64,000 nucleotides of DNA from Prorocentrum cordatum (Eukaryota; Sar; Dinophyceae; Prorocentrales; Prorocentraceae): NCBI GenBank assembly GCA_963575745.1, contig CAUYUJ010014207.1, positions 102,001 to 166,000 of the forward strand. The letters are read 5' to 3'. The position numbers and the translations under genes were made by a program. Each line of letters begins with the position of its first letter. Position 1 is the first letter of the stretch. The notes below the pieces were generated by a model. That model was not told the DNA's origin. It worked only from the letters and a program-made list of their open reading frames with translations, and did no database searches. Shown in pieces: positions 9,164 to 63,405 of the stretch.

Positions 9164-9314
9164 TTGAAGTCGGGCGTGTCCCTCTAAGGGATATTCGAAC
9201 AGAGCTAAGCATTGTATGGGGACGATTGTTTGGCTGATCATTTCTGATATTTTGTTTTTTATGTTTCATTTGTTGCCCAACATTCCCCTGTAGGGGGACA
9301 GGCCCGACCCAAGC
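9164..9314 (+). mobile_element. Introner-like element, copy 1 (inside LINE B)
   Basis: Begins TTGAAGTCGGGCGTGTCCC and ends GGGGGACAGGCCCGACCCAA. It separates two parts that are contiguous in LINE A (GSMRALW and GGLWPP), so LINE A serves as an empty site. Flanking octamers GCCTGATT and GCCTAGTG agree at 5 of 8 positions. Confidence 0.85.
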
Positions 9315-10620
9315 CTAGTGGGAGGAGCCATGTGGCCACCCACCCGCAAGTCTGCTGCCGGCTACGCCGACAACGATCGGTTCCAGCTTTGCTTGCAGGA
9401 TGCTCCTGGGTCGCTCGGCCAACATATATACGACTGTGAGTCTGTTTTGGAGCATCTGAGGTCTCGGGACCAAGTTCCCGAGGGCACCCTGGAGCGCAGG
9501 TCGAAACTTGGGGACCAGGGGGGGTTCGAGGATGGCGTCCAGGTCGGTGATTATGATGAGGTCCTTTATGTGCTCCCGCCTGTTCCGTGCCAGGCGAACC
9601 CCGTTTTTCCGAGTCGCTCCCTGTGCACTCCTGGGGGGCGACCGAAGTGCGTTGGGAGGGGCCTGGCGGAATCTAGTCCTGGACCGGCGGTGTCTAGTCC
9701 TGAACCGTGTAGGTGTGGATGGGCCGCGGTGGGGCTGGCCCCCAGTGGGCGCCCAGTGTCTGCGGCGCCCCCCTTGGTGGGCACCAGCCGGTGCCTCGGG
9801 CCGATCGGCATGCTATCTACCAGGCGCTTCGTGTTGGCCCCTTGGATGCTCGGATTGCTTCGGATGGCCCCTATGTTGTGATTCGTGGGTTTTTCAGCTG
9901 GCCGCGAGTGAGGCCAAGCATACGTGTGTCTGGCGAATGGCGTTCGCTCTCGACAACTGTGTTAGGCTCCACCCCAGTTTCAAGTGGCCCCCCTCCCACC
10001 GCGCATGGGACGAGGTTCTTGATCTCGAAGCTTCGGAGGTAACTGAGTGTCGCTGCAATTAGTGGTCTGATTTTTTCGCCCGCCTTGGGTCAGAGTCCCA
10101 TGCGGTCGCGAACGCTCCTGTTGAGCATGAGGCTGTCTGTATGAAGTCTACGCGTCTGACCTTCGATTTCCTGGCCAGGTTCTCGCAATCGATCGCCGCG
10201 TTGGCTCAAGAGTCCTCGATCTCGCCCGGCCCTGCTACGGGCGCCGTTTCCAGGAAGGTTGCCAAGGACCCCCTGGCCCTGACGTAGCACACGTTGTTCC
10301 AGTTTCCCAGTCGTGGTGAGTGGCGCTGCAGTGTATGTGACTTGTATGCCGTCACGCCCGCCTCCCACGCCCAACCCATAACGGGCAACAGGAAGGTTTG
10401 CGGGTCGTCCACATACCAGCGTTGGCAGGCCCGTGCTGTTCTCGCGGGCAGGGGTGAGGATCCCGTCCCGCTTTCGACCAGGGGGGGCGTCCCTTGCCAT
10501 GAATGCTGCGGACGAGGTCCTGGGGCCAATGTCTGAGGCCAGAGTCGCCCCCCGCCTCCATGTTGCAAGACAGGTGCAGGACCCTGGGGCACCAAATGGA
10601 GCAGCCTGGGCTTGTCCTGT
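9315..10620 (+). pseudogene. LINE B knuckle, RNase H and C-terminal zinc-finger remnant
   Basis: 9318 onward reads GGAMWPPTRKSAAGYA and GQHIYDC, matching LINE A's GGLWPPARKFDAG and GHQFFDC, but the first cysteine of the CxxC is lost. Later frames carry pieces of RNase H (WSDFFARLG at about 10063 matches NAWADFFAKLG) and EWRCSVC at about 10319, matching the C-terminal CxxC region. Several stops interrupt it, including TAG at 10060. The remnant fades before 10620. Confidence 0.75.
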
Positions 10621-10689
10621 TTTGCCCCCCCCCCCCCCTGCGCTTCGCACACGTCTCTCCCTGGAGGTCATCTGCGGGGCTTCAGTGCG

Positions 10690-10800
10690 AAGTGTAGCGG
10701 TCGGTCCGAGCACCCCTCTACCACCTACCAAGAGTAGTCTACCCAGAGTAGTCAGTCACCCCTCTACCAAGAGCACCCCACTACCAAGAGTAGCAAGGCC
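10690..10800. repeat. CTACCAAGAGTAG minisatellite
   Basis: Short imperfect repeats of CTACC(A)AGAGTAG or CACC occur at 10717-10795. No gene. Confidence 0.8.
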
Positions 10801-10984
10801 CTGGATTCTTTTTAAGTTGTGGAGGGGGGCCCTGTCGGTCTGAGGCCAGGCTCAGCGACACTTGCGCTGTTGGGCCTAAAACTGATGGGCCCCCTCCTTA
10901 CTGCCGTACCCATTGTTTGATGCAATATACTTGACGGCTGATTCGGTCCCTCGTAGCCGGGCGGTTGCGATTCGTTCCCGCTTT

Positions 10985-11135
10985 GATTGTTTGCTCGCTC
11001 GTCCTTCTCCTCCTCCTCCTCCTCGTCCTCGTCCTCGTCCTCATCCTTCTCCTCCTCCTTCTCATCCGCCTCCTCTTCCTCTCCCATCCCCCTCCTCATC
11101 CTCCTCCTTCTTCTCCTCCTCCTCCTCCTCCTCTC
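10985..11135 (+). repeat. CCT tract ending CTCTCCAG
   Basis: CCT/CTC/GTC triplets on the + strand end in an acceptor-like AG at about 11138. The following 250 bp are an open frame (GAAAVMATTGPTVP...) without recognisable similarity. Confidence 0.85.
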
Positions 11136-11138
11136 CAG

Positions 11139-11395
11139 GGGCTGCAGCTGTAATGGCGACGACTGGGCCAACGGTGCCGACGACGCTGACAACGCCGACG
11201 ACAACGTGCCAAGGACGCGACAATAGCGCCGTCGACGTCTGCGTTGCGGAGGTTCTTGGGCATTTCTGGAGGCCCTCGTCGCCGCGGCTGGACGCGGGTC
11301 GAACACCTGTCCCAGAACGTCCAGGGACCAATTCTGACAGCATTCTTGGTCCGACGCAGGGCGCGGTGGCGGGGGCATCGAAGGGAGGACGACGA
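11139..11395 (+). other. Open stretch after acceptor-like AG, no recognised gene
   Basis: The frame from the CTCTCCAG junction stays open to about 11404, with Thr-rich then Pro-rich residues. It could be an exon, but nothing in the protein is recognisable. Confidence 0.2.
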
Positions 11396-11645
11396 CGAGG
11401 ATGAAAAAAGAAGGAGGATGGAGGAAAAGGAACGCGGAGGAGGATGATGAGGAGGAGTGGAGCGGAGGAGGAAACAGGAGGAGGAGGAGGAGGAGGAGGA
11501 GGAGAAGGAGGAGGGAGGAGGAGGAGAAGGAGGGAGGAGGAGGAGGAGGGAGGAGGAGGAGGAGGAATGGAGCGGAGGAGGGAGGACGGGGAGGGAAGGA
11601 GAGAAGAGGGGGAAGCGCCCGGAAGGAGGAGCGATGAGGAAGGAT
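11396..11645. repeat. GGA tract
   Basis: GGA/GAA triplets. Arg/Glu-rich frames on the + strand and Pro/Ser-rich frames on the - strand are artefacts. Confidence 0.9.
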
Positions 11646-16756: not shown

Positions 16757-16921
16757 TTAGCTCGGGCCTGTCCCCCTGCAGGGGGATCTTTGGACGACAA
16801 GTTCACAACACCCCAAACATATGCAGAAGATGCCCACGAATAGTCAGAACATAGTCCCCAGACTAGTTTGTTGACTGTTTTTGGCTATCCCCCCTGTAGG
16901 GGGGACGGGCCCGACACTTCG
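16757..16921 (+). mobile_element. Introner-like element, copy 4
   Basis: Starts TTAGCTCGGGCCTGTCCCCC and ends GGGGGGACGGGCCCGACACT. The interior is rearranged relative to other copies (extra TTCACAACACCCC block). It lies at the edge of a family-H repeat. Confidence 0.75.
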
Positions 16922-17839: not shown

Positions 17840-20516
17840 CATCGGGGCCAGGAGGAGCTCGCCAAGCTGCGTTACCGCATAGAGTGCCTGGAGAGGAGGC
17901 TGCACCAGCCCGACGCGGAGTCATTCGGGAGGGGGGTCGTTGTCGTCCTCCTCACGCTGTTTATCTGAATTACCCTTCCTCCCCCACCTCCTCCTTTCTG
18001 CACCTTTTTCCTCCTGCTTTACCCCCCTCTTCTTCCTCCTATCCCACTTCCGACCTTTCCCTCGCCCTCACACCTTCCCACCTCGCTCTCTGCACTCCCT
18101 TTTCCCCTCATCCGTCTCCGCCTCCTCTCTCCCTCCACCTTCGCCTCCCCGCTCCCCTCCACCTGCTCCGCCTCCCGGTGCCAATCCCAGACAGTGCCCA
18201 AGGCTGAGATCACCGCCTTTGACCTGGCAGTGAGAGGTTCAACAGGAGCGCTGGTTTTCGCGACAGCTCGTGACGAGGCCAGCAGGGTTTCGTGGTCGCA
18301 GCTTTACCAACATTCCGGAGGTAAGCAGTCGGCGCTGCGAAGTCTCATTGGCTAGCACGTGCATGAGCAGCGACGACTGCCGGTTGAAGACAGATTGATG
18401 AAAGTACTGCCACACGTAGAGGCGGAGGAGGCATGTGCTAGAGACTTGCACAGATGCATGGTCCACGGCTCTACAATTGTTGACCATATGGCAGGTGAAG
18501 TGGCGAATGCCGCACGAGTCAGCGAGGTCGAACGACATCGAGCGGCGATAGTGGATCGTGAGGCTTCGCTGGTGCGGCGGCTGCTACTATTCAGTCGGGC
18601 ATGCCCCTTTACAGGAGGAGTACAGAAGGAGTGCCCAACCATAGTGAAAGCATAGACTGGTGACACAGTTTCGACTATGCTTGATTTTCTGTTTTTGCAG
18701 AGTTTTGTTATTTTATGTTTCTTCCAAAGTCTGCCCGTAGAAGGACATGCCCGGCGTAAGTGAAGCGGAGAGCGCCGCACGAGTTAGCGAGGTCGAACGA
18801 CATGGAGCGGCGATAGTGGAGCGTGAGGCTTCGCTGAAGCGGCAGCTGCTATTATTAAGTCGGGCATGCCCTTCTACAGGAGGAATGTTCACAAATAGTC
18901 AAACAATTGTCTTGGGGCGACGTTTCGACTATTTTTGGTTATGTTCGAGCACCTGTTGATTTTATGCTTCTTCCAAAATCCGCCTGCCGAAGGACATGCC
19001 CGACCTAAGTGAAGCGGCGAGCGCCGCACGAGTCGGCGAGGTCGAACGACATGGAGCGGCGATGGTGGAACGTGAGACTTCGCTGGTGAGGCGGCTGCTG
19101 CTCTTGAGTCGGGCATGCCCCTTTACTCGAGGAGCACAGGAGGAACATACAAGCGTAGCCAACACATAGTCTGGGGACGATGTTTCGATTCTTTCTGGCT
19201 ATGTTTGAGCACCTGATGATTTGTGTGTATGCTTCTTCCAGCATTCGCCCGTAGAAGGAGATGCCCGAACTTAGTGAAGCGGCGAGCACCGCAGGAGCCA
19301 GCGAGGTCGAACGACATGGGGCGGCGATGGTGGAGCGTGAGGCTTCGCCGGTGCGGCGGCTGCTACTATGAAGTCGGGCATGCCCCCCGACAGGCAGAAT
19401 GCAGGGGGAATGTCCAAACGTACAGGCGGCCCGGACGAGTAGGTCGACCCTGCCAGATCAAGGGCACCCTCGTGTCCTGTCTCTGGCGACCCATGCCTCC
19501 TGCATTTCTGTGGCAGCGTGGCCCTCGGAAGGGTCTTGTGTCCTCTCGAGTGTCCTCTCCAATCAAGTCCGACTGTAGTCAGAACATCAGAGGGGGAGGA
19601 GGAGGACGAGGCGGAGGAGGAGGAAGAAGGAGGAGGACAGCAGGAGGAATGCAGCGCGCGATGCTTCGCTGGTGCGGCGGCTGCTGCCGCGAGTGGCGCG
19701 CCTGCTTTGCGCAGCCCCTGGGTCTCCTTTCAGCGCCCTTCTCTGTCGCCTTGGGAAGGGCTTGCGGGCCGGAGGTCGTCGCCCGACGACGGCGTCGCCT
19801 CTCTCAAGCAGCAGGTTCGCGTGGCACAGGAGGGGCTGGGGTACGGTCGGACCGAGGTAGTAGGTCGAGGTCGGTTCCGGAAGGGTACCCTCCTATTCTT
19901 CGTGTTTGTTGGATGTTCATGTGCATCCTGGAGGAGGGTACCCTCAGTGCTCTTATGGTCGGCGAATGGTCTCATGCTCTTGGAGGATGTGTTGTCTGTT
20001 CTTGGTCCAGCCGTGGAGGAAGGCGCATGGTGGAGATGGGCTCAGTGCTCGAGATCGGTTCTGCGCCCTTCGTTTGCATTGAAGGGGTCTCGCGGATGCT
20101 GTAAGTCTTCTGCGGAACTTGACATCCGACCTCGGTGTATGGCCGGGACCTGGTTCTGTGTTATGCGTTCTTGATGTCGGTGGGACTTGTCGGGTAACGC
20201 CCGCCAAGTTCGGAAAGCGGCCAGGTGCCCAGTTTCCTGGGATCCTGGTGTCTATATCTCGGTGGCAGTTTCCGGCTGGATCCGGCGGGCGATGGGGCTC
20301 CCAGAGCAGAGGGTAGAGGATTCCGCGCGAATCTGACAGCAGTAGTGAGAGAGAGAGTGGAAATTGGCAGTATGTGTAGTAGGTATCAGGTCGGGTCGAA
20401 AGGGAATAGATGTTATAGGTGCAGAGCAGGAGTATTGCGGAGAGCGTGGCAAGCAGACCGTAGATGATTGAATGTTGCGTGGCTTGTTCCTCTAATTCTT
20501 CCTGTCAGTCTAGTTA

Positions 20517-24620: not shown

Positions 24621-25155
24621 ACTGCACGCAGGTCCCTCTTCTCACCACCTACCAAACCACCCCAACCCAACCCGAAGGCCTCCATTTGCCCTCCATTTCC
24701 AGTGGGGGGGGGGTCGGGGAACATCGAAAAAACGCATGTGGAACCCATACCCCCCCCAACCCGAAATTCGGGTCTTCGGGTTGGGTTGGGGTGGCCTGGT
24801 AGGTAGTCATCTTCTGCCTGTGTATCATCACAGGGCAGGGGGCCCCTTTGCGGGATCGAGGTCCGCTGGGTCCCCCGTCGGCGGCTGGAGAGCTACACAT
24901 TGTTCATTCATAGAAGTCTTCGAAGGTTCTTTGATTTTTTTTGGGGGGGGGGCAAGCTCCTTTCATTTCGGATTGTTCTATCCTGGGCCTCCTCCCGGCC
25001 ACCGAGGGGGCCAGGAACAATCAGAAACGAGCACAGTTAGAAATGAGCACGACTAGCACTGAACGACGCGCATCCGCGCCATGGGACAGATGGCGCGCGC
25101 GCGCTAAGCTTTGCCCGCCCCCCCCCCCGTCCCTGCCCCCCCCCAGCCGAGCCTT
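24621..25155. other. No gene recognised
   Basis: Contains two inverted stretches, ACCACCCCAACCCAACCCGA (24656) and TCGGGTTGGGTTGGGG (24776), so 24645-24812 could fold back. No coding signal. Confidence 0.4.
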
Positions 25156-25625
25156 AGTCGGGCCTGTCCCTCTACAGCAGGAATCATCCCAAATAGCAAA
25201 AAAAAAATAGCACGGGGGACGATACTTCCAGTATGTTTGATTATTTGTTGAAGCATTTGTTTGAAACTTGTAGATTTGTCGTCGAAGATCCCCCTGCAGG
25301 GCTTTTTTAAGTTTGTGGATGTATGTTTTGAAGATGGTAGATTTTCCGTCCAAGCTCTCCCTATAGGTTTTTTGTGCTTTACATGTTTGGTGTATTGTAG
25401 ATGTTTCGTCCAAGATCCCCTTGCAGGGCTTTCGATTTTGTTGATGTAATCTTCGAATATTGTAGATTTGTCGTCCAAAATCCCCCTGTCGGGCTTTTTG
25501 ATTTTTGTTTGATGTATCTTTTGGGTCTTGTAGATTTGCCGTCCCCCTGCAGGGCTTTTGCTTTTGTGTGGTGTCTCCTTTTGAATCTTGTAGGTTTTTC
25601 CTCCAGCATCCCCCTGTACAGTCGG
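25156..25625 (+). mobile_element. Introner-like element, copy 9, with tandemly amplified 3' end
   Basis: TTAGTCGGGCCTGTCCCTCT at 25156 starts a normal 5' half. The 3'-end block (TTGTAGATTTGTCGTCCAAG, ATCCCCCTGCAGGGC) is then repeated about six times at 58-70 bp spacing from 25268. No clean final terminus is present. Confidence 0.8.
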
Positions 25626-27200: not shown

Positions 27201-27357
27201 TCAAGTCTGGCATGTCCCTCTGCAGGAGGAAGATTCCAAAAATAGTCAAAAGTATCGTCTGGGGACGCTGTGTTGACTAGTTTGATTCAGTTGACAAGTA
27301 GTTGCTGGCTATTGTGTCTACCAGAGAATCTGCCTGTAGGGGACATGCCCGACCTGA
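27201..27357 (+). mobile_element. Introner-like element, copy 10
   Basis: TCAAGTCTGGCATGTCCCTC to GGGGACATGCCCGACCTGA. Flanks GAATTGGG and GGATGGGG match at 6 of 8 positions. Confidence 0.85.
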
Positions 27358-34465: not shown

Positions 34466-36175
34466 ATGCGGAGGCGAATGCGATGAGTGCTTGACGTTTG
34501 CTGGTCCTTTTGTGCGGCAGCACCGTCCCAAACACGCGCGCGCCAAGGCCAAGTAGTTTGGCGCGACCGAGGCGGCCGCGGTGGTTCTGACCGCGGGGCA
34601 CATCCCAGCGGGCGAGTCGGCGACTTGGGCGCGCGCGGTATCATGGCAACGTCGACTACGGTAGACAGGCGAGAAGTTTTTGGAACGAGTTTCGGCATGC
34701 GCGCGCGGCCCAGGCGCGAGAGTGGCCCGCGCGGTATTCCTTACACGGGCCGTGCCCTCCCAGCGCGCGCGCAAGGGCGCGCGAATGATGTCGGCATGCG
34801 GTGCCGCAGGCCCGCTTGGCAGAATGCCATGATCATGTTGAGAAACCGATGGCTTATCGTAAACACTCGCACGAGCGCGAGCGCATGCTGCTTGAAAGCT
34901 GATGTTGCGGAACCGTGTGTTAACAACAAAGAAGCTATGTTTGGGGGCGTTTGGTTTTGAAACCGCCGCGAAACCGAACGTTGTTGACGGATTTCGGCCT
35001 GCGTGCGCGACGACGCGCGCGCGTGTTCTTCGTTTTGTTTGTTGCAGCGAATTCGCGACAGCACGCGCGCAAAGGGCGTTCGGACGATTTCGACATGCGC
35101 GCGCGAAGCCCGTCCGGTTGAACAGCACATGGTTTTTTTAACAAGAAGTCACAAGGGCGCGCGCGCACGTTTTTTTGAAGATCTGCGTTGCGAGACCTTT
35201 CGCTTTTATATGTGTTTGGACACTCGATTTCGAAATCTCTATGACACCGAAGGTTTTGGACGGATTGTGGCACGCGCGGGCGACCACGCGTGCGCGTGCC
35301 AAAAGCGAACGACTTGCGCGCGAGGCCGACGCGCGATATTGGCGCGCATGGTATTATTTGAAACGGACCACGCCCCACCACCACCCCCTTAGCACGCGCG
35401 CAAGGGCGTGATAATGATCATAATAGAATTCGATGATGATGTTGGAACGACATACGATGTTTTCAATATTTCGTCAGAGTGCGAATGCACGCCTTTTTTC
35501 CAAGCTGATGTTACGAAACCGATGCTTACATTTATACACATATATGTATATACATATCTATAGATGTTGTTGAATACTGGGTTTGCTGTCGTTTCGAATC
35601 CGAAGGTTGTGGGCGGATTTCGGAATGTGGGCGCGACAACACGCGCGCTTTTTTTTGCAGCGAATTCTCGCCGCAGCACGCGCGCAAGGGCGTTCGAACG
35701 ATTTTGACATGCGCGCGCGGAGTTTTTTTTGTTTCTCTTGTTTTTTCCTGGTAGCGTGTTATGAACATATTGGGAAAACAAAGCGACGGCTTTCCTAACA
35801 ATCCCCAAAAGCGCGCAAGGAATCAACACATTTGTTGCGAAACCCAATGTTGCTATATGTTGTTTGGGAACTCGACCCTTCATTTGTTTTTACGAAGCTG
35901 GAAGTTCCTGAAGGATCTCAGCATGTGCGCGCGACGACGCGCGCGTGCGGACTTCATTGTTTGTTGCAAAGGGTTTTTGGCAACTGATGCGTTTTGATGA
36001 ACGAGTGCGCTTCGAGTGGCGCGGGGGGGCGAATACCGGCTCGCCCGTGATGGTATGAGCCCATACAGAAAATGAGCAAGGACGCGGAATCATACGTAAA
36101 TCACAGCATTCGGGACCGATTTGATAACCCCGGGGGGGGAGAGAGACTGCGATTTTGTTTTCTCAGAAGAGAACC

Positions 36176-37890: not shown

Positions 37891-37898
37891 CCTTTACA

Positions 37899-38052
37899 TT
37901 AAGTCGGGCCTGTCCCTTTACAGGGGAAATAATCAAAAATACTTTTAAAAAAGTTGCGTGTTTTTTTGTATTTTTGATCATTTTTGATTATTTTTCGAGT
38001 AAATTTTATTTTTCGTCGAAAATCCCCCTGTAGGGGGACAGACCCGAATTAA
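37899..38052 (+). mobile_element. Introner-like element, copy 14, with target duplication
   Basis: TTAAGTCGGGCCTGTCCC to GGGGACAGACCCGAATTAA. Flanks CCTTTACA (37891-37898) and CCTTAACA (38053-38060) match at 7 of 8 positions. AT-rich interior. Confidence 0.92.
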
Positions 38053-38069
38053 CCTTAACATAACTTCTC

Positions 38070-38205
38070 GGAGCTCCACGCGGATTTCTCGGATTGGCGT
38101 TGGGCCCCCCCTGGCGGTGCCTCCGGCGCCGGTCCTTGCGCGCTCCGCGCGCCAGGGAGCGTTCTTGTTCAGCGCGGATCCGAGAAATCCGCGCGGATCT
38201 GCGCA
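38070..38205 (+). repeat. Foldback element family F, copy 1
   Basis: CACGCGGATTTCTCGGATTG at the left is the approximate complement of GGATCCGAGAAATCCGCGCG at the right. The middle holds GGCGTTGGGCCCCCCCTGGC and GCGCGCTCCGCGCGCCAGGG. Confidence 0.85.
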
Positions 38206-38535
38206 AAGTATGTTCAGGTTGTTTCTCGCTCCTGTAGAGAAACCGATGCCGCTGCTCGTCCTGGAGAGGGCCCCCGCTGCCACGGCTTCATTGTTTTCAA
38301 TGCTCTGGCCACGGAGGTGTCTGTGGGGTAGCGGTATCGGAAACTTGTTTCGATTGGCAAGCGTAAACAGTACCTTTCGCCAGAGTGACCTTTGATGCGG
38401 GCCCAATGAAGTCCCCCAGTCGCCGAACGCGAAGCGGTAGCAGCGACTTGCGCGCCCAGGTTTGTCCACCCCGCGCTCCCTATAAGGGTCACTCTTGCGT
38501 GTAGCCGTTTCGAAGAAGAGAGTGCATCCATTGTT
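38206..38535. other. No gene recognised
   Basis: Unique sequence between two family-F copies. Confidence 0.35.
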
Positions 38536-38539
38536 CGGT

Positions 38540-38668
38540 TGAAGCTCCGCGCGGTTTTCCTGCGTCGGCGCGGGACACCACGCGCGGAGCGCGCCAAGGG
38601 TGGCGCCGGAGGCGCCGCCAGGAGGGGGCCCAGCGCGGATCTAGGAGATCCACGCGGAGCTAAGGTTT
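38540..38668 (-). repeat. Foldback element family F, copy 2, opposite orientation
   Basis: Read on the - strand it gives AGCTCCGCGTGGATCTCCTA ... GCGCTGGGCCCCCTCCTGGC, matching copy 1. The only family-F copy seen in this orientation. Confidence 0.8.
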
Positions 38669-39058
38669 ATGTTTAGGCATTTCTGCGTGTTCCTTTGAGA
38701 GCAGTGCCAGTACTTTCCCAGGCATGCGACGTTCCGATGTTTTTCTCTACGGGGCTCCGGGACGTCCCGACCCTTTCCCCAGGACCGGTTCCTCGTCCCG
38801 AGCATTCGACGATTCCGCCCATTAGAAAAACATGGTCCGCCGTGATTGTGCCACGATGCCACCCTTGCGGCGTCTGAGCCCTTGCGGCTGCCGAGCTCAC
38901 GATCGAGCCCATTCGACTGCCGAACAGGCTGAATGTCTTCGACCCAGTCGGAATTGAGCCCGTTCCGCTGCCCATTCGTTCGGTGGCAAATCATGGGAGC
39001 CTGGTGTACCCTCTCAATTCCGTCCTTAACGTCGATTCGCGTCTGGAAGTCGATGAGG
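38669..39058. other. No gene recognised
   Basis: Unique sequence without a coding signal. Confidence 0.35.
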
Positions 39059-39122
39059 TAGCGCCGATTTAGCGTACATTTAGCGTCGATTAGTGTCGAG
39101 CTAGCGTCGATTAGCGTCGGTT
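39059..39122. repeat. TAGCGTCGATTAG minisatellite
   Basis: Five or six short imperfect repeats of TTAGCGTCGA. Confidence 0.85.
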
Positions 39123-39234
39123 CTCAAGAGCCGACAAGATGGTATGGGATGCTCCCATCAGCTGCCACCAAACACTCGGCGGCCGAATGGGGTCAAACGC
39201 GGAACGGGCTCAGAAGGGAGCCCTGGGGCAGCAC

Positions 39235-39388
39235 GTCTCAGGAGGGACAAGAACACAGACACACCTCTTTCGAGTCGTAGGAACATATCGAATATCTTGG
39301 AAGTGGGTGGGAAGGCGGACATCCACTAAATATGGAAAAAGCATGTTGCATCCTGGGATTTGTGTGTTCTTCCTGGGCCCCTTCAGTG
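39235..39388 (+). mobile_element. ACACAGACACA element, copy 2
   Basis: TCAGGAGGGACAAGAACACAG ... TTGGAAGTGGGTGGGAAGGC ... TTCCTGGGCCCCTTCA. Same order as at 59968-60131. Confidence 0.75.
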
Positions 39389-39424
39389 GAAGAACAGCCA
39401 ACGGCATCGACATAAACTTTTGGC

Positions 39425-39555
39425 AGTCCACACGGATTTCTTGTATTTGCGCTGGGCCCCCCTGGCTGCGCTTCCAACGCCGCCCCCGGCACACTCCGCG
39501 CGCCAGGCAGGGGGGTCCGGCGCAGATCCGAGAAACCAGCGCGGACCGTCGATGC
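39425..39555 (+). repeat. Foldback element family F, copy 3
   Basis: TCCACACGGATTTCTTGTAT ... GCGCTGGGCCCCCCTGGC ... GCGCAGATCCGAGAAACCAG. Confidence 0.82.
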
Positions 39556-39830
39556 TCACGGTCGGACCCAGGTATACGGTCGAGGTCGGCTCGGGGAGGT
39601 TACCCTGATGTTATTAGTGTTTGGTTGATGTCGCGTTGCATCCAACAAACACAGCCCGCGCAGGGCGCGCTCCGGCGCATGCTGCTTCTGACCCCTCTGG
39701 ATGTTATGTTGCATCCTGTGGGAAGGTACCCTCGAATGTTCTTCAGTTTGGCCGGCGGAGGGTGTCATACAGTCGACCTTGCATCCTCATCGCGCATCCT
39801 TATTCTACGGGTTGGTTGTAGTCCTGAAGA
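39556..39830 (+). repeat. Dispersed repeat family H, copy 3
   Basis: CACGGTCGGACCCAGGTATA, GGTCGAGGTCGGCTCGGGGA, GGTACCCTCGAATGTTCTTC and GGCGGAGGGTGTCAT match copies 1 and 2 in order. Confidence 0.7.
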
Positions 39831-39892
39831 ATGTTGTTGTGTCTTATGCCCGACTGTCAGCCGTTTTTCTTCCCATGTTCCATGTCTGAGCT

Positions 39893-39925
39893 CTCGCCTC
39901 CCCGATGGAGGCCTGGTGGGACGCC
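39893..39925 (+). repeat. 33-bp direct repeat, left copy (flank of LINE C)
   Basis: CTCGCCTCCCCGATGGAGGC then CTGGTGGGACGCC. The same 33 bp with two mismatches is at 47699-47731, so the pair brackets LINE C. Confidence 0.85.
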
Positions 39926-39929
39926 ACGC

Positions 39930-40115
39930 CACAGAGGTAAGGAGGAGGAGGAGGAGGAGGGAAACACGCACACAGACACAAACACTCGCCGACCCCCATG
40001 AGAAATAAGGGACATCTGGGAAGTGAGGGGGGAAATGTAATCTACATCCAGATGTGAAACATGTGTGGGCCATCATTGGACTTGTGCCCATCCGTTTGTG
40101 CCTCCCTGGGCCCCG
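39930..40115 (+). mobile_element. ACACAGACACA element, copy 3
   Basis: A GGA run then AACACGCACACAGACACA ... ATCTGGGAAGTGAGGGGGGA ... CTCCCTGGGCCCCG. The most diverged 3' half of the family. Confidence 0.7.
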
Positions 40116-52666: not shown

Positions 52667-55600
52667 GCTTCCTGCGCGACACCTACTGCGGCAGCATCGG
52701 CTTCGAGGCCGGGCACCTGGTCTCCCACTCCGAGCGGCGGTGGTGGCAGCGCGCCGCCGAGCGGCGGCCGGCGCCTTGGCTGGACCCTCCCACGAGCCGG
52801 CGCCGGCAGATCATCCGGCTCCTGCTGCGCGCCTCGCTCTTCACGGAGTTCCTGAACATGAAGTTCCCCACGAGCAAGTTCTTCGGGCTCCACGGCATCG
52901 AGGCCCTGATCCCCGGCCTCTACCGGCTCTGCCGCCGCTCCGCAGGCCACGGCGTCGAGAGCGTGGAGCTGGGCCTCGCGCACCGGGGGCGCCTCAGCAT
53001 CCAGTCGAACCTGCTTGGCAAGCCGATGGGCCTCATCTGCGCGGAGATGCAGGAGAACCCCAGCGACTTCCACGTGGGCGATGTGAAGTACCACACGGGC
53101 TTCGCTGGCATCCTCCATGGTGCTGGCGTCGAGGAGGACCCCGATCAGCTCACGGTGCGGGTTCGCATCACGCCCAACCCGAGCCACCTGGAGGCGGTGG
53201 GGCCCGTGGTGGTCGGACGGGTCCGCTCCATGCAGGATGCCCTCGGCGGCGGCGAGCAGGCGCGGAAGAGGGTCGTGGGGGCCGTCGTCCACGGGGACGC
53301 GGCCCTCTCCGGGCTCGGCGTGCCCTTCGAGTGCATGAACCTGGCGGGGCTGGACGGCTACGAGACCGGTGGCACGATCCACGTCGTCCTGAACAACCAG
53401 GTCGGCTTCACCACCCCCCCGCACCAGGGGCGCTCCACGCGGCACCCGAGCGACATCGCCAAGGCCATGGACGTGCCGGTGCTGCACGTCAACGCGGATG
53501 ATGTCGAGGCGGTGGATTACGTCTTCAGCCTCGCCGCGGACTGGAGGGCGGAGTTCGGCCGAGACGTGGTTGTGGACTTGGTCGGATACCGACGCTATGG
53601 CCACAACGAGCAGGACCAGCCCGACGTCTACGCGCCGATGTCGTACGCTCGGGTTCGGGGGCATCCGATGGTGGACGAGCTGTACGGTGCGAAGCTCGTG
53701 CAGGCTGGTGCGGTGGGAGAGGAGGACATCGCTGAGATGAAGAGGGAGGTGCTGGGCGAGTTCGAGGCCCAGTATGCAGAGATGACTTGCCACCGTCAGA
53801 GCGGAGTCGAGTGGCTCCGCGACAACTACAGTGGCACCGTCACCCTTTGGGGCCGGAAAGACCCCTTCGAGGCACCTCGGCAGCCGACGGGCGTCCCTTT
53901 GGAGACCCTGCGCCGCATCACGACGGCGTGCACGACGCCCCCGCAAGGATTCTCTCTGCACCCGACTGTGGCGCAGATGCTCGAGAAGCGGCGGCGAATA
54001 GTCACCGAGGGGCCTGGCGTCAGGGTCGATTGGGCGACGGCGGAGATGCTGGCCTTTGCGACCATCCTGCTCTTCCGGGACGTGTGGGCAGGGAACAGCG
54101 GGACCGGACCCTGGCAAGTGGATCGGGACCGCTTCCTGGCGCACCTCAACATCCGGCTCTCGGGCCAGGACAGCGCGCGCGGCACGTTCAACCACCGCCA
54201 CGCCCTGATCCACGACATGCAGACGGGGGCCGAGTGGCGGCCCCTCGAAGCCATGGCGCCGGGGCAGCAGGCGCGCTTCTCGGTGTTCAACAGCCCGCTG
54301 AGCGAGATGGCCGTCGTGGCCTTCGAGTACGGCTACTCGGTGGAGGACGCCCGGACGCTGGTGTGCTGGGAGGCACAGTTCGGAGACTTCGCGAACAACG
54401 CGCAGGTGGCCATCGACCAGTTCATCGCCTCGGGCGAGGAGAAGTGGGGGCAGGGCTCCTCCCTTGTGCTGCTCCTACCGCACGGATACGACGGGCAGGG
54501 GCCCGATCACAGCTCGGCGCGCCTGGAGCGGTTCCTGCAACTGGTCAACGACGACCCGGACCACCTCCCCGGCACCTCGCCCAAGGATGTCCGAGACATC
54601 GAGCGGGCCTTCGACGTCCTGGACAAGACGTCGGCGGGCGTCATCTCGAAGGAGGAGGTGATGGACTACCTCTCCGAGCTCCAGAAGGCAGGGCCGCCAA
54701 CGATCCGATTCGATGCGATCCGATTCTCCGGCCGGGGCCGCGGCTACACCCCGGCTCGATGCAGGCTCGATCCGCAGGCATCGGCTGGGGCCAGCCGGAG
54801 CCGGGCGCGGCGTTCCGCTTCCGACCCGCTTCGGGGCGATTCGTGGGCGGTCCGATCCGCCTCCGGTCCGATCCGATGTCGCGACTCGATCCAGCTCGGG
54901 CCTGGAATCGCCGAGCGCGCCCCACATGCTGGCAGTGTGCCGGGCCTACTCGCAAACGTCAGGAAAGAAGCCGGGCCTTCCTCTAGATGTGCAAGAGGTC
55001 GGGAGTCACCCGCGGCGCATCCGGGCCATCTGCGAGTAGTTGACCCGCGAGTCGTGGGGCGCCCTTGTCCACGGGAGGCGAACCTGACGGAGGAGCGGAC
55101 GGCCGAGGAGGTCTGGGCGGAGGTCGCCTCCGAGCTGCACGGTGCGGACCACGAGCGCCGCGGGATCGACCGCGCGCAGTGGCGCCAGATCATGACGACG
55201 TGGATGCGGCGGCACGCCGAGGATTATAGTGCTCCAACCTACCTGAAACAAAACACAAACCAAGAACAGGAAAAAAATGCTCCAACCTAGCTTAGCCTTG
55301 ACCACCAAAAGGAAGTTCGAGCGCCAAAACAGTGCTGAAACTCGAGGGCTTTCACGCGTCGGGCCCCGGGAGACGCTCGCCCGACACTGTCTCGACACTC
55401 TTTCGACACTCTCTCGACGCTTTGCCGGATGCTCGAGCAGATTATTTCGGGGATGGGGTCCCGAAGCACGACGGGGGCAGCATAAGCCGAGGAGCAGACC
55501 AACCTCTTCGTGGTCAACGTCAGCACCCCGGCGCAGTACTTCCACTGCCTGCGCAGGCAGGCCCACATGCCCTACAGGACTCCGCGGGCGAAGCAGGGCG

Positions 55601-57891
55601 TACGACGCGGGCGGGCGGCGGGCACGTCCCTCTGCCGGGGGAGTGTTCAAGCAACAGGTGGGTTGCATGCTTCTGGAATGGAACAAGAGTTTTGGGGCGA
55701 TGCTTCGACTGTGTTTGACTCTGTTCGACTACCTTTCAGTCGGGCCTGTCCCTCTACAGGGGGGATATTCCCAAATAGTCAAAATATAGTCTGGGGCTTT
55801 GTTTGACATGTTTGGGCATCTTTTGAATATTTTGCGTGTTCTTTTTTCCCAACCCTCTTGCGTTGGGTTCACGTTTTGAATAGAGCACTGCTCGCGCCTT
55901 CCCACCCCCTCCCGTCCCTCTCTTCCCCCCTGCCTTTTACCTGGCTCGTCGCTGCGTTTCGAGGGCTGCTGGGGGCTGCGATCTGTGAAACTGTCGCCAC
56001 TTTCGAGGGCTGCTGGGGGGCCCAGCACAGTGGCACCCGCGGCGGATTCAAATGGGACCTCGCCATCCCTGGGGGGCTGCGATCTGTGAAACTGTCGCCA
56101 CTTTCGAGGGCTGCTGGGGGGCCCAGCACAGTGGGTACCCACGGCGGATTCAAATGGGACCTCGCCATCCCTGGGGGGCTGCGATCTGTGAAACTGTCGC
56201 CACTTTCGAGGCCTGCTGGGGGGCCCAGCACAGTGGGCACCCGCGGCGGATTCAAATGGGACCTCGCCATCCCTGGGGGGCTGCGATCTGTGAAACTGTC
56301 GCCACTTTCGAGGGCTGCTGGGGGGCCCAGCACCACGCCGGATTCAAATGGGACCTCGCCATCCCTGGGGGGCTGCGATCTGTGAAACTGTCGCCACTTT
56401 CGAGGCCTGCTGGGGGGCCCAGCACAGTGGGTACGGCGGATTGAAATGGGACCTCGCCATCCCTGGGGGGCTGCGATCTGTGAAACTGTCGCCCCTTTCG
56501 AGGCCTGCTGGGGGGCCCAGCACAGTGGGCACCCACGGCGGATTCAAATGGGACCTCGCCATCCCTGGGGGGCTGCGATCTGTGAAACTGTCGCCCTTTC
56601 GAGGCCTGCTGGGGGGCCCAGCACAGTGGGCACCCACGGCGGATTCAAATGGGACCTCGCCATCCCTGGGGGGCTGCGATCTGTGAAACTGTCGCCACTT
56701 TCGAGGCCTGCTGGGGGGCCCAGCACAGTGGGCTTCCCGCACGTCTTTCTCCTGCTCTTCGTTCCCGACTCCCCATGTCCTCTTCGAGCCTGTAGTTGTC
56801 GCCCCTCGTTCTTGTATGGTTCTCCTGCGCATCCTTCCATTGGCGCGTGTCCCAAGTAGCTTACATATCAAACAACGGATCCTGCAATTTGATTGTCCGT
56901 GCTATTTTCGGCCAACTCTTCGTTTCCCATGATACAAATGGGTTGGGTACGTCACAGGGTAATTCATTTGTCGTCCAAGATCCCCCTGTAGGGGGACAGG
57001 CCCGACCTAAGACTACCTATGTATTGGGCGTGTTCGATTTGTCGTCCACGACCTGCCTGTAGGAGGACACGCCCGACCTGAGCATCCGACTAACTTTCCC
57101 GCCGTCCAGGGACGCCTCCCCCCAAGGCGGCTGGAAAGGCTTGCACCCTGATGTTAAGTCGGGCCTGTCCCTCTACAGGAGGAATATTCAAGAATAGTCA
57201 AAAACTAGTATGAGGACTATTTTTGAGTATTTTTGACCATTGTGGAATATTTGTTTCGTATTTGCAATTTTTCGTCTAAATCCCCCTGTAGGGGGCCACG
57301 CCCGACTTACCCCTGATGTGCCACAGCAGGTGTATAATCGTTTCCAGCCGCCCTGGGGCAGGCGTCCCCGGCGGCAGGGAAGCACGTTCTGCGCAGTGCC
57401 CCGCCCGCCACAGGAAGCCCCTCGTGGTCATGGCGCCGAAGTACCTCCTCCACCACTCCAAGGCGACCTCGGCGCTCGAGGACTTTGGCCCGGGGCAGTT
57501 CTTCCGCCAGGTCATCGTGGACTACAACCCGCAGGCCTCCGAGTACGCGGGCCTCGGCGACAACACGCGGCACCTGGCCCTGCTCAGGAGCGGCGCCCCC
57601 GCCATGGAGAGGCCGGCGAACGTGCGCCGGCTGATCATCTGCAGCGGGCAGATGTATTACACCCTCTCGAACGCGCGGAGGGCGCGCAAGGTCAAGGACG
57701 TTGCCTTGATGCGGCTGGAGCAGATCGCGCCTTTTCCCCACGACAGGATCACGGAGGCCATATCGTTCTACCCCAGCGCCGAGGTAATGTGGTGCCAGGA
57801 GGAGCCGAAGAACATGGGTGCCTGGTTCTACGTGCGGCCGAGGCTCCAGACCGCTCTGCGCTTGTGCTCGGCCAGCTTCCGCAGGCACGTC
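52667..57891 (+). CDS. OGDH: 2-oxoglutarate dehydrogenase E1 component (partial, four exons)
   Basis: E1 is the thiamine-diphosphate enzyme that decarboxylates 2-oxoglutarate in the TCA cycle, normally mitochondrial. Exons: 52667-54687, 55078-55221, 55492-55577 and 57414-57891; phases agree at each junction. Exon 1 carries GLAHRGRLSIQSNLLGKP, GDVKYHTGF, NPSHLEAVGPVVVGRV, LNNQVGFTT (cofactor site), YRRYGHNEQDQP, GTFNHRHA, EAQFGDFANNAQVAIDQF and PDHSSARLERFLQL. Exons 1-2 add an EF-hand-like pair absent from the bacterial and animal E1 I compared from memory. Exon 3 has VSTPAQYFHCLRRQ. Exon 4 has KPLVVMAPKYLLHH and WCQEEPKNMGAW. The N-terminal third (with any mitochondrial targeting signal) and the last 35 or so residues (YxGRxxSA...) are not visible. 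Introns 2 and 3 start GA rather than GT. Intron 1 (54688-55077) would start GC and is a stop-free multiple of three, so it could also be retained. Confidence 0.93.
54580..55221 (+). other. EF-hand-like pair inserted in E1
   Basis: Exon 1 ends with IERAFDVLDKTSAGVISKEE (loop DKTSAGVISKEE, which has Gly at position 6 and Glu at 12 but weak ligands at 3 and 5). Exon 2 encodes AEEVWAEVASELHGADHERR then GIDRAQWRQIM, a second helix-loop-helix. The pair sits between ERFLQLVNDDPDHLPG and NLFVVNVSTPAQ, which in bacterial and animal E1 are joined by a short or unrelated segment. Confidence 0.6.
55222..55491 (+). other. E1 intron 2 made of dispersed repeat family B
   Basis: The exon-intron borders share GCCGAGGA (55216-55223 and 55486-55493), so the boundary is ambiguous within 8 bp and no shift gives GT-AG. 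The interior matches 28727-28870 (GCTCCAACCTA.., TTAGCCTTGA, GTCGGGCCC.GGGAGAC, CGACACTGTCTCGACACT). Confidence 0.75.
55955..56737. repeat. Minisatellite, unit about 102 bp, 8 copies
   Basis: GGGCTGCGATCTGTGAAACT starts units near 55973, 56074, 56176, 56278, 56369, 56466, 56569 and 56669. Spacings are 91-103 bp, and the short units lost part of the CCCACGGCGG segment. Frames are open on both strands because 102 is a multiple of three; no protein is implied. Confidence 0.95.
56738..56950. other. Unique stretch inside the enlarged introner-like element
   Basis: About 210 bp unrelated to other copies, between the minisatellite and the 3' end. It may be foreign DNA brought in with the minisatellite. 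Confidence 0.4.
57154..57310 (+). mobile_element. Introner-like element, copy 18, with perfect target duplication
   Basis: TTAAGTCGGGCCTGTCCC to GGGCCACGCCCGACTTAC. Perfect 8-bp duplication CCCTGATG at 57146-57153 and 57311-57318. In E1 intron 3, 100 bp before exon 4. Confidence 0.96.
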
Positions 57892-58566: not shown

Positions 58567-58717
58567 TTAAGTCGGGCCTGTCCCTTTACAGGAGGAGTAT
58601 TCGGGAATAGTGCACAACATAGTATGGGGAGGATTTGTGAGTATTTTTTTCTAGCATCTTGGGACTAAACACGCAACTCGCCCAACATCCCCCTGTAGGG
58701 GGGCACGCCCGACTCAG
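58567..58717 (+). mobile_element. Introner-like element, copy 19
   Basis: TTAAGTCGGGCCTGTCCC to GGGCACGCCCGACTCAG. Flanks TGTTCACG and TTTTCATG match at 6 of 8 positions. Confidence 0.88.
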
Positions 58718-61920: not shown

Positions 61921-62140
61921 GATGAAGAAGAAGCAGGAGGAGGAGGAGGAGGAGGAGGAGGAGGAGGAGGAGGAGAGGCAAGGTGGAGGAGGAGAGAGGA
62001 GGAGGAAGGGCACGAGGAGGATGAGTGGGAGGGAGGGGGAGAGGGAGGAAGGGGAGGAGGAAAAGAGGAGGGGGAGGAGTGGGGGAAGGAGAAATGATGG
62101 AGTGATGCGGGGGGGGAGAGAGAGAGAAGGACGGGTAGAA
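61921..62140. repeat. GGA tract
   Basis: GGAGGAGGAA-type triplets up to the start of the RNase H frame. Confidence 0.95.
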
Positions 62141-62142
62141 AC

Positions 62143-62748
62143 AAAAGGTTCGCCACGCATCCGCTGGACCAGCTTCCGGATGGGCACGGCGACGACGCGC
62201 CCGTCGTGCAGTGGAACGTAGTGGCCAGAAGCATGTTGTTCACTACGGATTGCAAGCCTCTGGCCGGCGTGGTCAATGGAACCACCGCGCTGGCAGCGCC
62301 CTCCCTCGGATCCGTCTTCGCTCGAACGACCCAGAGCTTCTTCAACGTCATGGGGTATGGATGCAGGCCGGCACAAGATGCGGATGGCATGGTTTTGTGG
62401 CACAAAAGTGATTGGAATATCAGAGCAGATTATTTGATTAACCACACAATGCACGAAACAAGATTTTGGTATCAAGCATTTCTGGCAGAGTCTCTAGATC
62501 TGAACCAAGCCACTCTGATTCACAGCGACGGCGGCACTCGAGCAGGGTCTTGTTCGGCAGCCGCCTGGTGCGTGGAGGCTGTGACTCGCCGCGGTCCGAT
62601 GGAATGCACCCGCCTGCTTACGATAGCCGGCGCGCTCATCAGCGATCCAGTTTCTGCTTTTACAGCGGAGGCTCTCGGCTTAGAGGAAGCGGCACGGGCG
62701 ACGAGGGAACTCGCCAATCAGATAAGCAACTGGCCATCAGTACACTGA
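62143..62748 (+). CDS. RNase H-like protein, retroelement type
   Basis: One uninterrupted frame, from about 62143 to TGA at 62746-62748, of about 200 codons. It has no clear start codon, so an exon or truncated copy is likely. The first half (LFTTDCKPLAGVVNGTTAL, later SDWNIRADYLINHTMHE) resembles the C-terminal part of an RNase H fold. The second half starts a new unit with IHSDGGTRAGSCSAAAWC, where SDGG holds the first catalytic Asp, and continues FTAEALGLEEAARATRELAN, which holds the Glu. The later Asp residues of the second unit are missing before the stop. Tandem RNase H units of this kind occur in many dinoflagellate retroelement-derived genes. It differs from LINE A-C. An introner-like element begins 64 bp downstream. 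Confidence 0.65.
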   Translation, partial: KRFATHPLDQLPDGHGDDAPVVQWNVVARSMLFTTDCKPLAGVVNGTTALAAPSLGSVFARTTQSFFNVMGYGCRPAQDADGMVLWHKSDWNIRADYLINHTMHETRFWYQAFLAESLDLNQATLIHSDGGTRAGSCSAAAWCVEAVTRRGPMECTRLLTIAGALISDPVSAFTAEALGLEEAARATRELANQISNWPSVH

Positions 62749-62811
62749 TCTAGGCCCGGCGAAAGAAAGAAGAAAGCGAGAAGGACGAACGGAGGAGGTG
62801 GATGGGTAGAC

Positions 62812-62962
62812 TTAAGTCGGGCCTGTCCCTGTACAGGGGGGATAGTCAAACATAGCTTGCGGACTCTGTTTTGAGTCTTTGTTGGCCATCTTGGAGCATG
62901 TTCTGCTCATGTTTTTAATTTTTCGTCGGAAATCCCTTTCTAGGGGGGCAGGCCCGACTTCA
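62812..62962 (+). mobile_element. Introner-like element, copy 21, with target duplication
   Basis: TTAAGTCGGGCCTGTCCCTG to GGGGCAGGCCCGACTTCA. Flanks GGGTAGAC (62804-62811) and GGGTCGAC (62963-62970) match at 7 of 8 positions. Confidence 0.94.
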
Positions 62963-63096
62963 GGGTCGACGGAGCAGCAAAAAGGGAAAAGGGGGGGTGG
63001 GGGGAGGCGGGAGCAGGGGGGGAGACAGGCCGGGGGAGGAGGGCGAGGAGTGCCCCCCCGCTCCTGCGCCCGCTCCTGCCTCCGCGCCTCCCTCCT
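62963..63096. other. No gene recognised
   Basis: GGGGGAGG-rich spacer between two mobile copies. Confidence 0.4.
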
Positions 63097-63240
63097 CTCG
63101 GGAGGGGGACAAACACACAGACACAGTGAGTCGTCGATTTCCCCGAGGGTGTGGGAGAAGATGGGAAGTGGGGGGGAAGACAAAGAGCCAGAAACGATGG
63201 GAAGATATGGGGAATCCTTTTGTTTGTGTGTCCTGCTCCT
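63097..63240 (+). mobile_element. ACACAGACACA element, copy 5
   Basis: TCGGGAGGGGGACAAACACA ... GTGAGTCGTCGATTTCCCC ... GATGGGAAGTGGGGGGGAAG ... GGGGAATCCTTTTGTTTGTG. The best match to copy 4 and, at its 3' end, to copy 1. Confidence 0.8.
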
Positions 63241-63269
63241 GCTCCTGCTTCTGCACCTCCCTCCTCGTA

Positions 63270-63405
63270 TTAAGTCGGGCCTGTCCCTCTACAGGGGGGA
63301 GTCTGCGGACGATGTTTTGACTATTTTTGTCTATTTTGGGGGTATGTTTCGAATATGTTCAATGTGTTGCCCAAAATCCCCTGTGGGGGGACACGCCCGA
63401 CTTAA
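63270..63405 (+). mobile_element. Introner-like element, copy 22, with target duplication
   Basis: TTAAGTCGGGCCTGTCCCTC to GGGGACACGCCCGACTTAA. Flanks TCCTCGTA (63262-63269) and TCCTCGTC (63406-63413) match at 7 of 8 positions. At 136 bp the shortest full copy. Confidence 0.94.

What the first reader, a model, noticed from the sequence alone, without database searches (positions are those of the whole stretch)
9164..63405. About 22 introner-like elements in 64 kb, all in one orientation
The sequence shows a family with shared inverted ends (TTAAGTCGGGC.../...GCCCGACTTAA) and a shared interior. Copies lie at 9164, 12189, 15133, 16757, 18590, 18855, 19104, 19369, 25156, 27201, 29143, 30197, 37091, 37899, 52048, 55613, 55735, 57154, 58567, 60311, 62812 and 63270. 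Four copies have perfect 8-bp flanking duplications and four more match at 7 of 8 positions, as expected for a DNA transposon. The interior is asymmetric, yet no copy is reversed. If orientation were random this would be very unlikely. It suggests that only copies whose transcript strand can be spliced survive, or that insertion follows transcription direction. Introners are established in dinoflagellates and other algae; whether this family is described is unknown to me.
Basis: partly seen in the sequence, partly recalled or inferred. Interest (0 to 1): 0.88.

Follow-up and report, generated by a model that had tools for sequence, protein, structure and literature searches.

The report
Mini-transposons in introns facing one way
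This stretch of dinoflagellate DNA holds about two dozen copies of a short mobile element that sits inside gene introns and nearly always faces the same way as the genes; many unrelated short repeats nearby obey the same rule, which points to one shared pressure rather than a trick of this one element.

Summary
The family is real. A profile gives 23 hits above 25 bits in the window, 22 on + and 1 on -. The claim that no copy is reversed is wrong: 16757-16915 is reversed. Copies are ~160-bp elements with inverted ends and 8-bp target duplications (31 copies, z 11.5). No transposase search was answered. Assembly size and largest scaffold fit Prorocentrum cordatum.

The element is on the coding strand in 15 of 15 copies at five genes, and on the strand of the nearest spliced-leader relic in 12 of 13 places within 50 kb.

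It is not shown to create introns. In three introns with junctions supported by continuous protein alignment (8 copies) and one weaker case (1 copy), the splice sites lie outside it. A second family, B, does behave as an introner: three dynein introns are one B copy each.

The one-way orientation is not specific to this family. 37 of 53 other repeat families on the contig are fully coherent once blocks left and right of ~100 kb are read in opposite directions; base skew flips there too.

Best reading: non-autonomous DNA transposons colonising introns, antisense copies removed by selection.

The parts
9166..9312 (+). family A copy
   Evidence: nhmmer 97.2 bits
12189..12349 (+). family A copy
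   Evidence: 100.0 bits
15133..15287 (+). family A copy
   Evidence: 116.8 bits
16757..16915 (-). family A copy, REVERSED
   Evidence: 112.8 bits on -; - 100.9 against + 56.2
18590..18759 (+). family A copy, first unit of a local tandem duplication
   Evidence: 93.9 bits; shared flanks
18855..19008 (+). family A copy, second unit of the tandem duplication
   Evidence: 127.4 bits
19104..19272 (+). family A copy, third unit of the tandem duplication
   Evidence: 109.6 bits
19370..19417 (.). terminal remnant, orientation not decided
   Evidence: 19.4 bits on -, 15.5 bits on +
25155..25301 (+). family A copy without right end
   Evidence: 82.9 bits, model 3-142; weak interior hits follow at 25381 (17.2) and 25435 (20.9)
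27202..27356 (+). family A copy
   Evidence: 95.2 bits
29144..29299 (+). family A copy
   Evidence: 88.6 bits
30197..30340 (+). family A copy, 8-bp duplication 7 of 8
   Evidence: 97.4 bits
37091..37248 (+). family A copy
   Evidence: 109.5 bits
37900..38051 (+). family A copy, duplication 7 of 8
   Evidence: 111.5 bits
52048..52210 (+). family A copy, duplication GTTTACCT 8 of 8
   Evidence: 118.4 bits
52668..54665 (+). 2-oxoglutarate dehydrogenase E1 exon (both ends approximate)
   Evidence: Pfam E1_dh 8.5e-40, Transket_pyr 2.7e-29; PDB 2xta, 2jgd
55498..55577 (+). OGDH exon reading TNLFVVNVSTPAQYFHCLRRQAHMPYR (approximate start)
   Evidence: sequence; aligned to human OGDH 7wgr, continuous with the next exon
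55578..57413 (+). OGDH intron, GA...AG, holding five A copies or fragments
   Evidence: exon ..CCCTACAG then GAAGCCC..; junction continuous; A hits
55619..55735 (+). partial A copy inside the OGDH intron
   Evidence: 30.6 bits
55736..55844 (+). A copy without right end, inside the OGDH intron
   Evidence: 70.2 bits
56944..57010 (+). right-end A fragment inside the OGDH intron
   Evidence: 43.3 bits
57018..57081 (+). right-end A fragment inside the OGDH intron
   Evidence: 33.9 bits
57154..57309 (+). A copy inside the OGDH intron, duplication CCCTGATG 8 of 8
   Evidence: 139.0 bits
57414..57907 (+). last OGDH exon, ends in a stop
   Evidence: translation; alignment to OGDH
58567..58715 (+). family A copy
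   Evidence: 98.7 bits
60312..60472 (+). family A copy, duplication GCCTCGCG 8 of 8
   Evidence: 119.6 bits
62812..62961 (+). family A copy, duplication 7 of 8
   Evidence: 102.7 bits
63270..63405 (+). family A copy, duplication 7 of 8
   Evidence: 103.8 bits
8892..9002 (+). family B fragment
   Evidence: 47.9 bits
26920..26991 (+). family B fragment
   Evidence: 31.3 bits
39235..39389 (+). family B copy
   Evidence: 58.6 bits
39953..40120 (+). family B copy, weak
   Evidence: 51.6 bits
59967..60131 (+). family B copy, duplication TTAAC
   Evidence: 119.4 bits
63097..63235 (+). family B copy
   Evidence: 74.9 bits

Best explanation
Family A is a family of short (~160 bp) non-autonomous cut-and-paste DNA transposons (MITEs) of a dinoflagellate, most likely Prorocentrum cordatum. 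A transposase encoded elsewhere would move it, duplicating an 8-bp target with a weak nnCTAGnn consensus. It has piled up in introns of genes arranged in same-strand blocks. Insertion itself should be nearly orientation-blind, because the target is near-palindromic; copies antisense to transcription are then lost by selection on the transcript, leaving about nine copies in block-sense direction to one against. Nearby unrelated element families pass the same filter, so the orientation reads out the transcription direction of the block, not a property of this family. Shown: the family, its ends, the duplications, the bias, the sense relation to five genes and to spliced-leader relics, location inside introns with outside splice sites in the cases tested, and coherence across many families on this contig. 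Inferred: the transposase in trans, selection as the cause, and what makes antisense copies harmful (disturbed splicing, or pairing of antisense RNA with the many sense copies).
For: 8-bp duplication: mean identity 0.694 against 0.366 shuffled, z 11.5, z of 2.0 or less at all other lengths 2-12; 6 of 31 exact. Target: T at position 4 in 25 of 31 left copies, C3, A5 and G6 in 16, 14 and 16. Oriented 17-mer 3801 forward, 3912 reverse, control 0/0. Bias 48 to 5 above 40 bits in 304 kb. Same-contig neighbours agree in 33 of 39 pairs among the first 100 listed places. Nearest spliced-leader relic on the same strand: 5 of 5 within 20 kb, 12 of 13 within 50 kb, 15 of 18 within 100 kb, 23 of 32 at any distance (52 of the 100 listed places given). 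Coding strand at five genes: OGDH 5 of 5, dynein 5 of 5, ATP synthase alpha 3 of 3, a PDE-like gene 1 of 1, a Cfr/RlmN-like gene on the - strand 1 of 1. Other families: 126 same to 26 opposite right of 110 kb, 8 to 31 across the switch; 37 of 53 families fully coherent, 16.3 expected by chance. T-A skew flips at the switch with repeats and known exons masked. Unrelated families A and B agree in 16 of 19 places within 100 kb.
Against: No antisense insertion was watched being lost, and an insertion bias is not excluded. Five of 53 copies above 40 bits in 304 kb are reversed; one of them and a weaker reversed fragment lie just past the last dynein exon that I identified, so they may be antisense inside that gene. 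The 11-mer set, which mixes element ends, agrees with relics less well: 10 of 15 within 20 kb, 15 of 24 within 50 kb, 29 of 40 within 100 kb; relics themselves agree with their neighbours in only 22 of 31 pairs within 100 kb. 16 of 53 other families are not fully coherent (among them 7 of 12, 4 of 6, 3 of 5), and the block boundary was chosen on the same data. Skew right of the switch is slightly negative in two of the 20-kb bins, 222-262 kb. No shared 3'-half pyrimidine bias (9 of 24 families), against one simple splice-signal cause; sense strands are T-rich in 18 of 24, but B is A-rich. No transposase was found; every family search did not complete.
Confidence: 0.62

Rival explanations
1. 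Family A is a true introner: it lands in exons, becomes an intron by using splice sites in or beside its duplications (for example CTAG|G), and copies inside larger introns are later nested insertions.
For: Family B in the same neighbourhood does this in three of three dynein introns that it makes up. The A target contains AG, and the left flank reads CTAG|G in 42 of the 100 places listed. Introners of great diversity in dinoflagellates are published (passages of PMC11453091).
Against: 0 of 8 A copies or fragments in three introns with supported junctions, and 0 of 1 in a weaker case, coincide with the splice sites. Few introns examined.
Confidence: 0.2
2. Insertion is biased: the integration complex meets transcribed DNA in a fixed polarity, so copies land sense-wise without selection.
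For: Coherence is found in many unrelated families, as a general insertion rule would give.
Against: Cut-and-paste integration into a near-palindromic target has no obvious polarity; families with different duplication lengths (8 bp; 5 bp) would need the same polarity.
Confidence: 0.2
3. Local duplication makes nearby repeats direct rather than inverted, without any link to transcription.
For: The 18590-19370 cluster is a tandem duplication; duplications of this kind could explain part of the coherence of the other families.
Against: Full-length A copies mostly have different 8-bp duplications and median pairwise identity 66%, so they are separate old insertions; other-family pairs were counted only when more than 5 kb apart; agreement with spliced-leader relics.
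Confidence: 0.05
4. Orientation follows replication direction rather than transcription.
For: Long blocks with one skew sign.
Against: Orientation agrees with the coding strand at five genes and with spliced-leader relics, but gene strand and replication direction may coincide.
Confidence: 0.08

Closest known systems
Introners (introner elements) of dinoflagellates and other algae
   Same: Short non-autonomous elements with inverted ends and target duplications, many copies, in introns; dinoflagellate host. Introns enriched in inverted-repeat introner elements are reported for P. cordatum (PMC10666404, passages seen).
   Different: Here A sits inside introns whose splice sites lie outside it; intron creation is not shown. 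PMC10666404 defines introner elements by 8-20 nt inverted and 3-5 nt direct repeats within 30 bases of intron ends, a definition that deep-lying copies would escape.
Introners of Aureococcus and Symbiodinium (PMC9860276, section 7 read)
   Same: Aureococcus: 8-bp duplication plus 4 bp of element added to the transcript. Symbiodinium: inverted ends, splice site co-opted from a 4-bp duplication.
   Different: No evidence that A carries or co-opts splice sites in the introns examined.
Family B of this report
   Same: Same genome, same orientation rule, similar size, same dynein gene.
   Different: 5-bp duplication; the intron is the element itself; both splice sites come from the duplication.
hAT-superfamily MITEs
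   Same: 8-bp duplication; central TA in the target (hAT features from recall).
   Different: Ends begin TTAAGTCGGGC, not the CAG-type ends recalled for hAT; no transposase tested.
Orientation bias of mammalian intronic transposons (PMC3517506, PMC5717806, PMC1794541; abstract openings seen in a search listing)
   Same: Bias of intronic elements relative to the gene strand, explained by selection or by insertion.
   Different: Those reports are of antisense bias in retroelements; here about 90% sense, in DNA transposons of more than one family.

Membership tests
MITE (non-autonomous TIR DNA transposon) | short, no coding capacity, inverted terminal repeats | tested here: met
   ~160 bp consensus whose reverse complement matches its own ends
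MITE (non-autonomous TIR DNA transposon) | target-site duplication of fixed length | tested here: met
   8 bp only, z 11.5
MITE (non-autonomous TIR DNA transposon) | high copy number | tested here: met
   oriented 17-mer at 7,713 places, control 0
MITE (non-autonomous TIR DNA transposon) | autonomous partner with the same ends | not tested
   PF05699 requested; none answered
Introner | copies lie in introns on the coding strand | tested here: met
   15 of 15 copies at five genes on the coding strand; 8 of them in three introns with supported junctions, 1 in a weaker one, the other 6 not placed exon by exon
Introner | element ends coincide with or supply the splice sites, so that insertion creates the intron | tested here: not met
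   0 of 8 copies in three introns, 0 of 1 in a weaker case; sample small
Introner (family B of this report) | element ends coincide with or supply the splice sites | tested here: met
   three introns of 168, 168 and 169 bp, AG|GA or AG|GC within the 5-bp duplication, open reading frame across each joint; predicted from DNA, no RNA seen
hAT superfamily | 8-bp target duplication | tested here: met
hAT superfamily | CAG/TAG-type terminal bases (from recall) | tested here: not met
   ends TTAAGTCGGGC...GCCCGACCTAA
hAT superfamily | hAT transposase in trans | not tested
   search not answered

The most novel reading that the evidence does not exclude
Strand locking: in long one-way transcription blocks, every abundant short transposon family, whatever its sequence, is forced onto one strand, because an antisense copy would make RNA complementary to thousands of sense copies already in the transcriptome (or an inverted pair within one transcript). 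The orientation that first becomes common wins, family by family, so repeats record the direction of transcription and its switch points across a 4-Gb genome even inside introns.
Probability: 0.3. Interest if true: 0.8.

Novelty: new variant of a known kind. Interest (0 to 1): 0.55.

Why it matters
If the strand rule holds genome-wide, dispersed repeats give a transcript-free map of transcription direction and strand-switch points in dinoflagellates, and separate two ideas often merged under 'introner': elements that create introns (family B) and elements that colonise existing ones (family A). It makes a question testable: do fresh insertions start orientation-blind and lose their antisense half, or insert one way?

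Tried and rejected
Rejected: 'no copy reversed' (16757 is reversed). Rejected: local duplication as the general cause for family A (different target duplications, low identity). Rejected as a general rule: a pyrimidine-rich 3' half on the sense strand; A has it, 15 of the 24 families tested do not (these 24 were those at least 75% coherent with two or more copies of 120 bp, plus A and B). A first masking script masked nearly everything because identity self-hits were included; it was redone. The first codon-usage script failed on N and was redone; it and its later form call few exons, so most of the window has no gene call. Control for that caller, sequence reversed without complementing: 17 real against 2 in the contig, 6 against 1 in the small loci. 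A motif hunt for the end of dynein failed. The weak RecA-like hit for L039 (E 0.0007) was not trusted and L039, which also agrees in strand, is left out of the gene count. The first form of this report called four introns equally secure; the check supports three junctions well and the fourth only weakly.

Not achieved: of the genome-search requests only five were answered. Kinase (PF00069), hAT (PF05699) and tubulin (PF00091) family requests did not complete, so there is no autonomous partner and no large gene-strand table. Place lists are capped at the first 100.


Full report
WHAT IS THERE. The window is positions 102001-166000 of contig C13358 in an assembly of 4,128,499,153 bases and 21,875 contigs. 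The largest contig seen has 3,562,531 bases. The published Prorocentrum cordatum CCMP1329 assembly has 4.15 Gb, maximum scaffold 3.56 Mb, 59.7% G+C and 22,724 scaffolds (PMC10666404, passages); the window has 61.3% G+C. I infer that this is that species; the scaffold counts differ and no record names it. A profile built from the listed copies and refined on 31 full-length copies gives 26 hits above 15 bits in the window, 24 on + and 2 on -; above 25 bits 22 and 1. The copy at 16757 is clearly reversed. In 304 kb of contig above 40 bits the count is 48 + to 5 - (two-sided binomial 7e-10; this treats copies as independent, which the tandem cluster at 18590 is not). No copy above 15 bits lies in C13358:2001-110000, of which about 10 kb reads N.

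ANATOMY. Each copy is about 160 bp, with inverted ends starting TTAAGTCGGGC and a T-rich second half. Among 31 full copies on 264 kb of the contig, flanking identity is significant at 8 bp only (0.694 against 0.366, z 11.5; 6 exact). One search fixed the ends by the best match to the terminal 11-mers. The target consensus is a weak nnCTAGnn (T4 in 25 of 31 left copies; C3, A5, G6 in 16, 14, 16). Copies are diverse: pairwise identity 51-84%, median 66%. Genome-wide, TTAAGTCGGGC occurs 24,900 and 25,291 times on the two strands against 303 and 321 for the pattern read backwards. The oriented 17-mer CTACAGGAGGAATATTC occurs 3,801 and 3,912 times against 0 and 0. Equal totals are expected, because contig strand is arbitrary.

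ORIENTATION AND GENES. Of the first 100 listed 17-mer places, 39 neighbouring pairs share a contig and 33 agree in orientation. The 3' end of the dinoflagellate spliced leader (motif from recall; taken as a relic marking the coding strand of retroposed genes, also from recall) occurs 14,996 times, control 0. I compared the 52 of the 100 listed 17-mer places that lie on contigs covered by the first 100 relics. The nearest relic is on the same strand in 12 of 13 places within 50 kb, 15 of 18 within 100 kb and 23 of 32 at any distance. The 11-mer set (88 of 100 places after dropping end pairs), which mixes left and right ends, gives 15 of 24, 29 of 40 and 51 of 71. At five genes all 15 copies are on the coding strand: OGDH 5, outer-arm dynein beta heavy chain 5, ATP synthase alpha 3, a PDE-like gene 1 (Pfam scores just under the cut-off) and a Cfr/RlmN-like gene 1 on the - strand. 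These lie on three contigs. Two of the dynein copies lie in an unresolved stretch of about 9.8 kb between exons.

NOT INTRON-MAKING WHERE TESTED. OGDH intron 55578-57413 starts GA and ends AG and holds five A copies or fragments; the joined exons align without a break at the junction to human OGDH (7wgr). Dynein intron C13358:287315-288225 starts GC, ends AG and leaves HPNAEI-NFRTAQ continuous; it holds two A copies that share one target site: TCTTAGGC, A, TCTTAGGT, A, TCTTGGGT. The ATP synthase alpha intron of about 260 bp starts GC, ends AG and holds an A copy flanked by CATTAACTTT on both sides; the joined exons align without a break (6tmh). In a fourth, weaker case (dynein, about 288.4-288.7 kb) the A copy appears, by eye, to lie inside a copy of another repeat family (F2); the downstream exon aligns only weakly and its junction is not placed. 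Thus 0 of 8 copies or fragments in three introns, and 0 of 1 in the weaker one, provide a splice site. GC and GA donors fit the species: 51.4% GC, 23.8% GA, 24.7% GT. On the other side, 42 of the 100 places listed read CTAG|G, so the target could serve as a splice junction elsewhere.

A TRUE INTRONER NEXT DOOR. Three dynein introns of 168, 168 and 169 bp are one copy each of another family, B: TCAGGAGGG...GCCCCTTCA with a 5-bp duplication (9 copies of 150 bp or more among 15 hits; 5 of 9 exact, 0 of 1,000 shuffles reaching the observed identity). The 5' GA or GC and the 3' AG both fall in the duplication, and joining leaves an open frame that continues the flanking exons. No RNA was seen, so splicing is inferred.

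THE RULE IS GENERAL ON THIS CONTIG. A tandem-masked self-comparison of 304 kb finds 53 further dispersed families, 174 copies. Pairs more than 5 kb apart are 126 same to 26 opposite right of 110 kb and 8 to 31 across 100-110 kb. The breakpoint was chosen on these data. With it, 37 of 53 families are fully coherent against 16.3 expected by chance, and 8 of the 11 with five or more copies; the other three are 7 of 12, 4 of 6 and 3 of 5. Two-copy families alone: 18 of 24 agree, p 0.023. In the six families aligned I read inverted ends by eye only; I did not test their duplications. With repeats and known exons masked (131,643 of 304,000 bases), T-A skew is -0.088 left and +0.062 right; 31 of 42 left 2-kb bins are negative and 53 of 79 right bins positive, p 4e-8. 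The two coding calls left of the switch are on - (one reverse-transcriptase-like below the Pfam cut-off). An earlier, smaller training set had called one + segment there, with no Pfam match. Genome-wide, B and the nearest A agree in 16 of 19 places within 100 kb, and B neighbours in 17 of 21 pairs. B against relics is too sparse: 4 of 6 within 100 kb, 5 of 9 at any distance.

MECHANISM. A near-palindromic target gives insertion no evident polarity, so loss of antisense copies is the simplest cause. Block-sense strands are T-rich in 18 of 24 families (p 0.002) but B is A-rich, and no common 3' pyrimidine bias exists. That argues against one splice signal and leaves room for a sequence-independent cost such as antisense RNA. 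This step is inference.

NOVELTY. Introners in dinoflagellates, and in P. cordatum, are in print. I found no description of this family or of a many-family strand rule in the listings of my eight paper searches or in the passages of the four papers that I opened. The library lacks most subscription papers; Roy et al. 2023 (Current Biology) is known to me here only through citations, so absence is weak evidence. The supplement of PMC10666404 was not readable here.

Noticed in passing
C13358:266999-267166, 285010-285177, 286161-286329 (L021, L022, L023): Family B: three dynein introns each made of one 163-164 bp element with a 5-bp duplication that supplies both splice sites.
   Followed up: yes
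C13358 about 100 kb (just left of the window): Apparent strand switch: repeat orientation and T-A skew both flip; family A is absent from the left side.
   Followed up: partly
window 56039-56798: Tandem array of about 102-bp units inside the same OGDH intron (D17).
   Followed up: no
L023 1300-1680 (C13358:287300-287680): Two A copies share one target site (three 8-bp near-repeats): a second insertion at the first one's duplication, or a tandem gain.
   Followed up: no
window 54600-54690: After the OGDH homology the frame continues into a weak EF-hand-like match (15.2 bits, below Pfam's cut-off of 25).
   Followed up: no
C13358:29491-29856 (L003), - strand: Reverse-transcriptase-like segment (PF00078, E 1.6e-4, below cut-off); observed only.
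   Followed up: no
C13358:291849-292188: Two reversed A fragments just past the last dynein exon identified; they may be antisense within that gene.
   Followed up: partly
C13358:10001-15000, 35001-40000, 181483-186482, 228983-233982: Four 5,000-base runs of N in the fetched DNA, plus two 100-base gaps.
   Followed up: no
one search list, genome-wide: The base after CTAG in the left target copy is G in 42 of 100 listed places, C 26, A 17, T 15.
   Followed up: no
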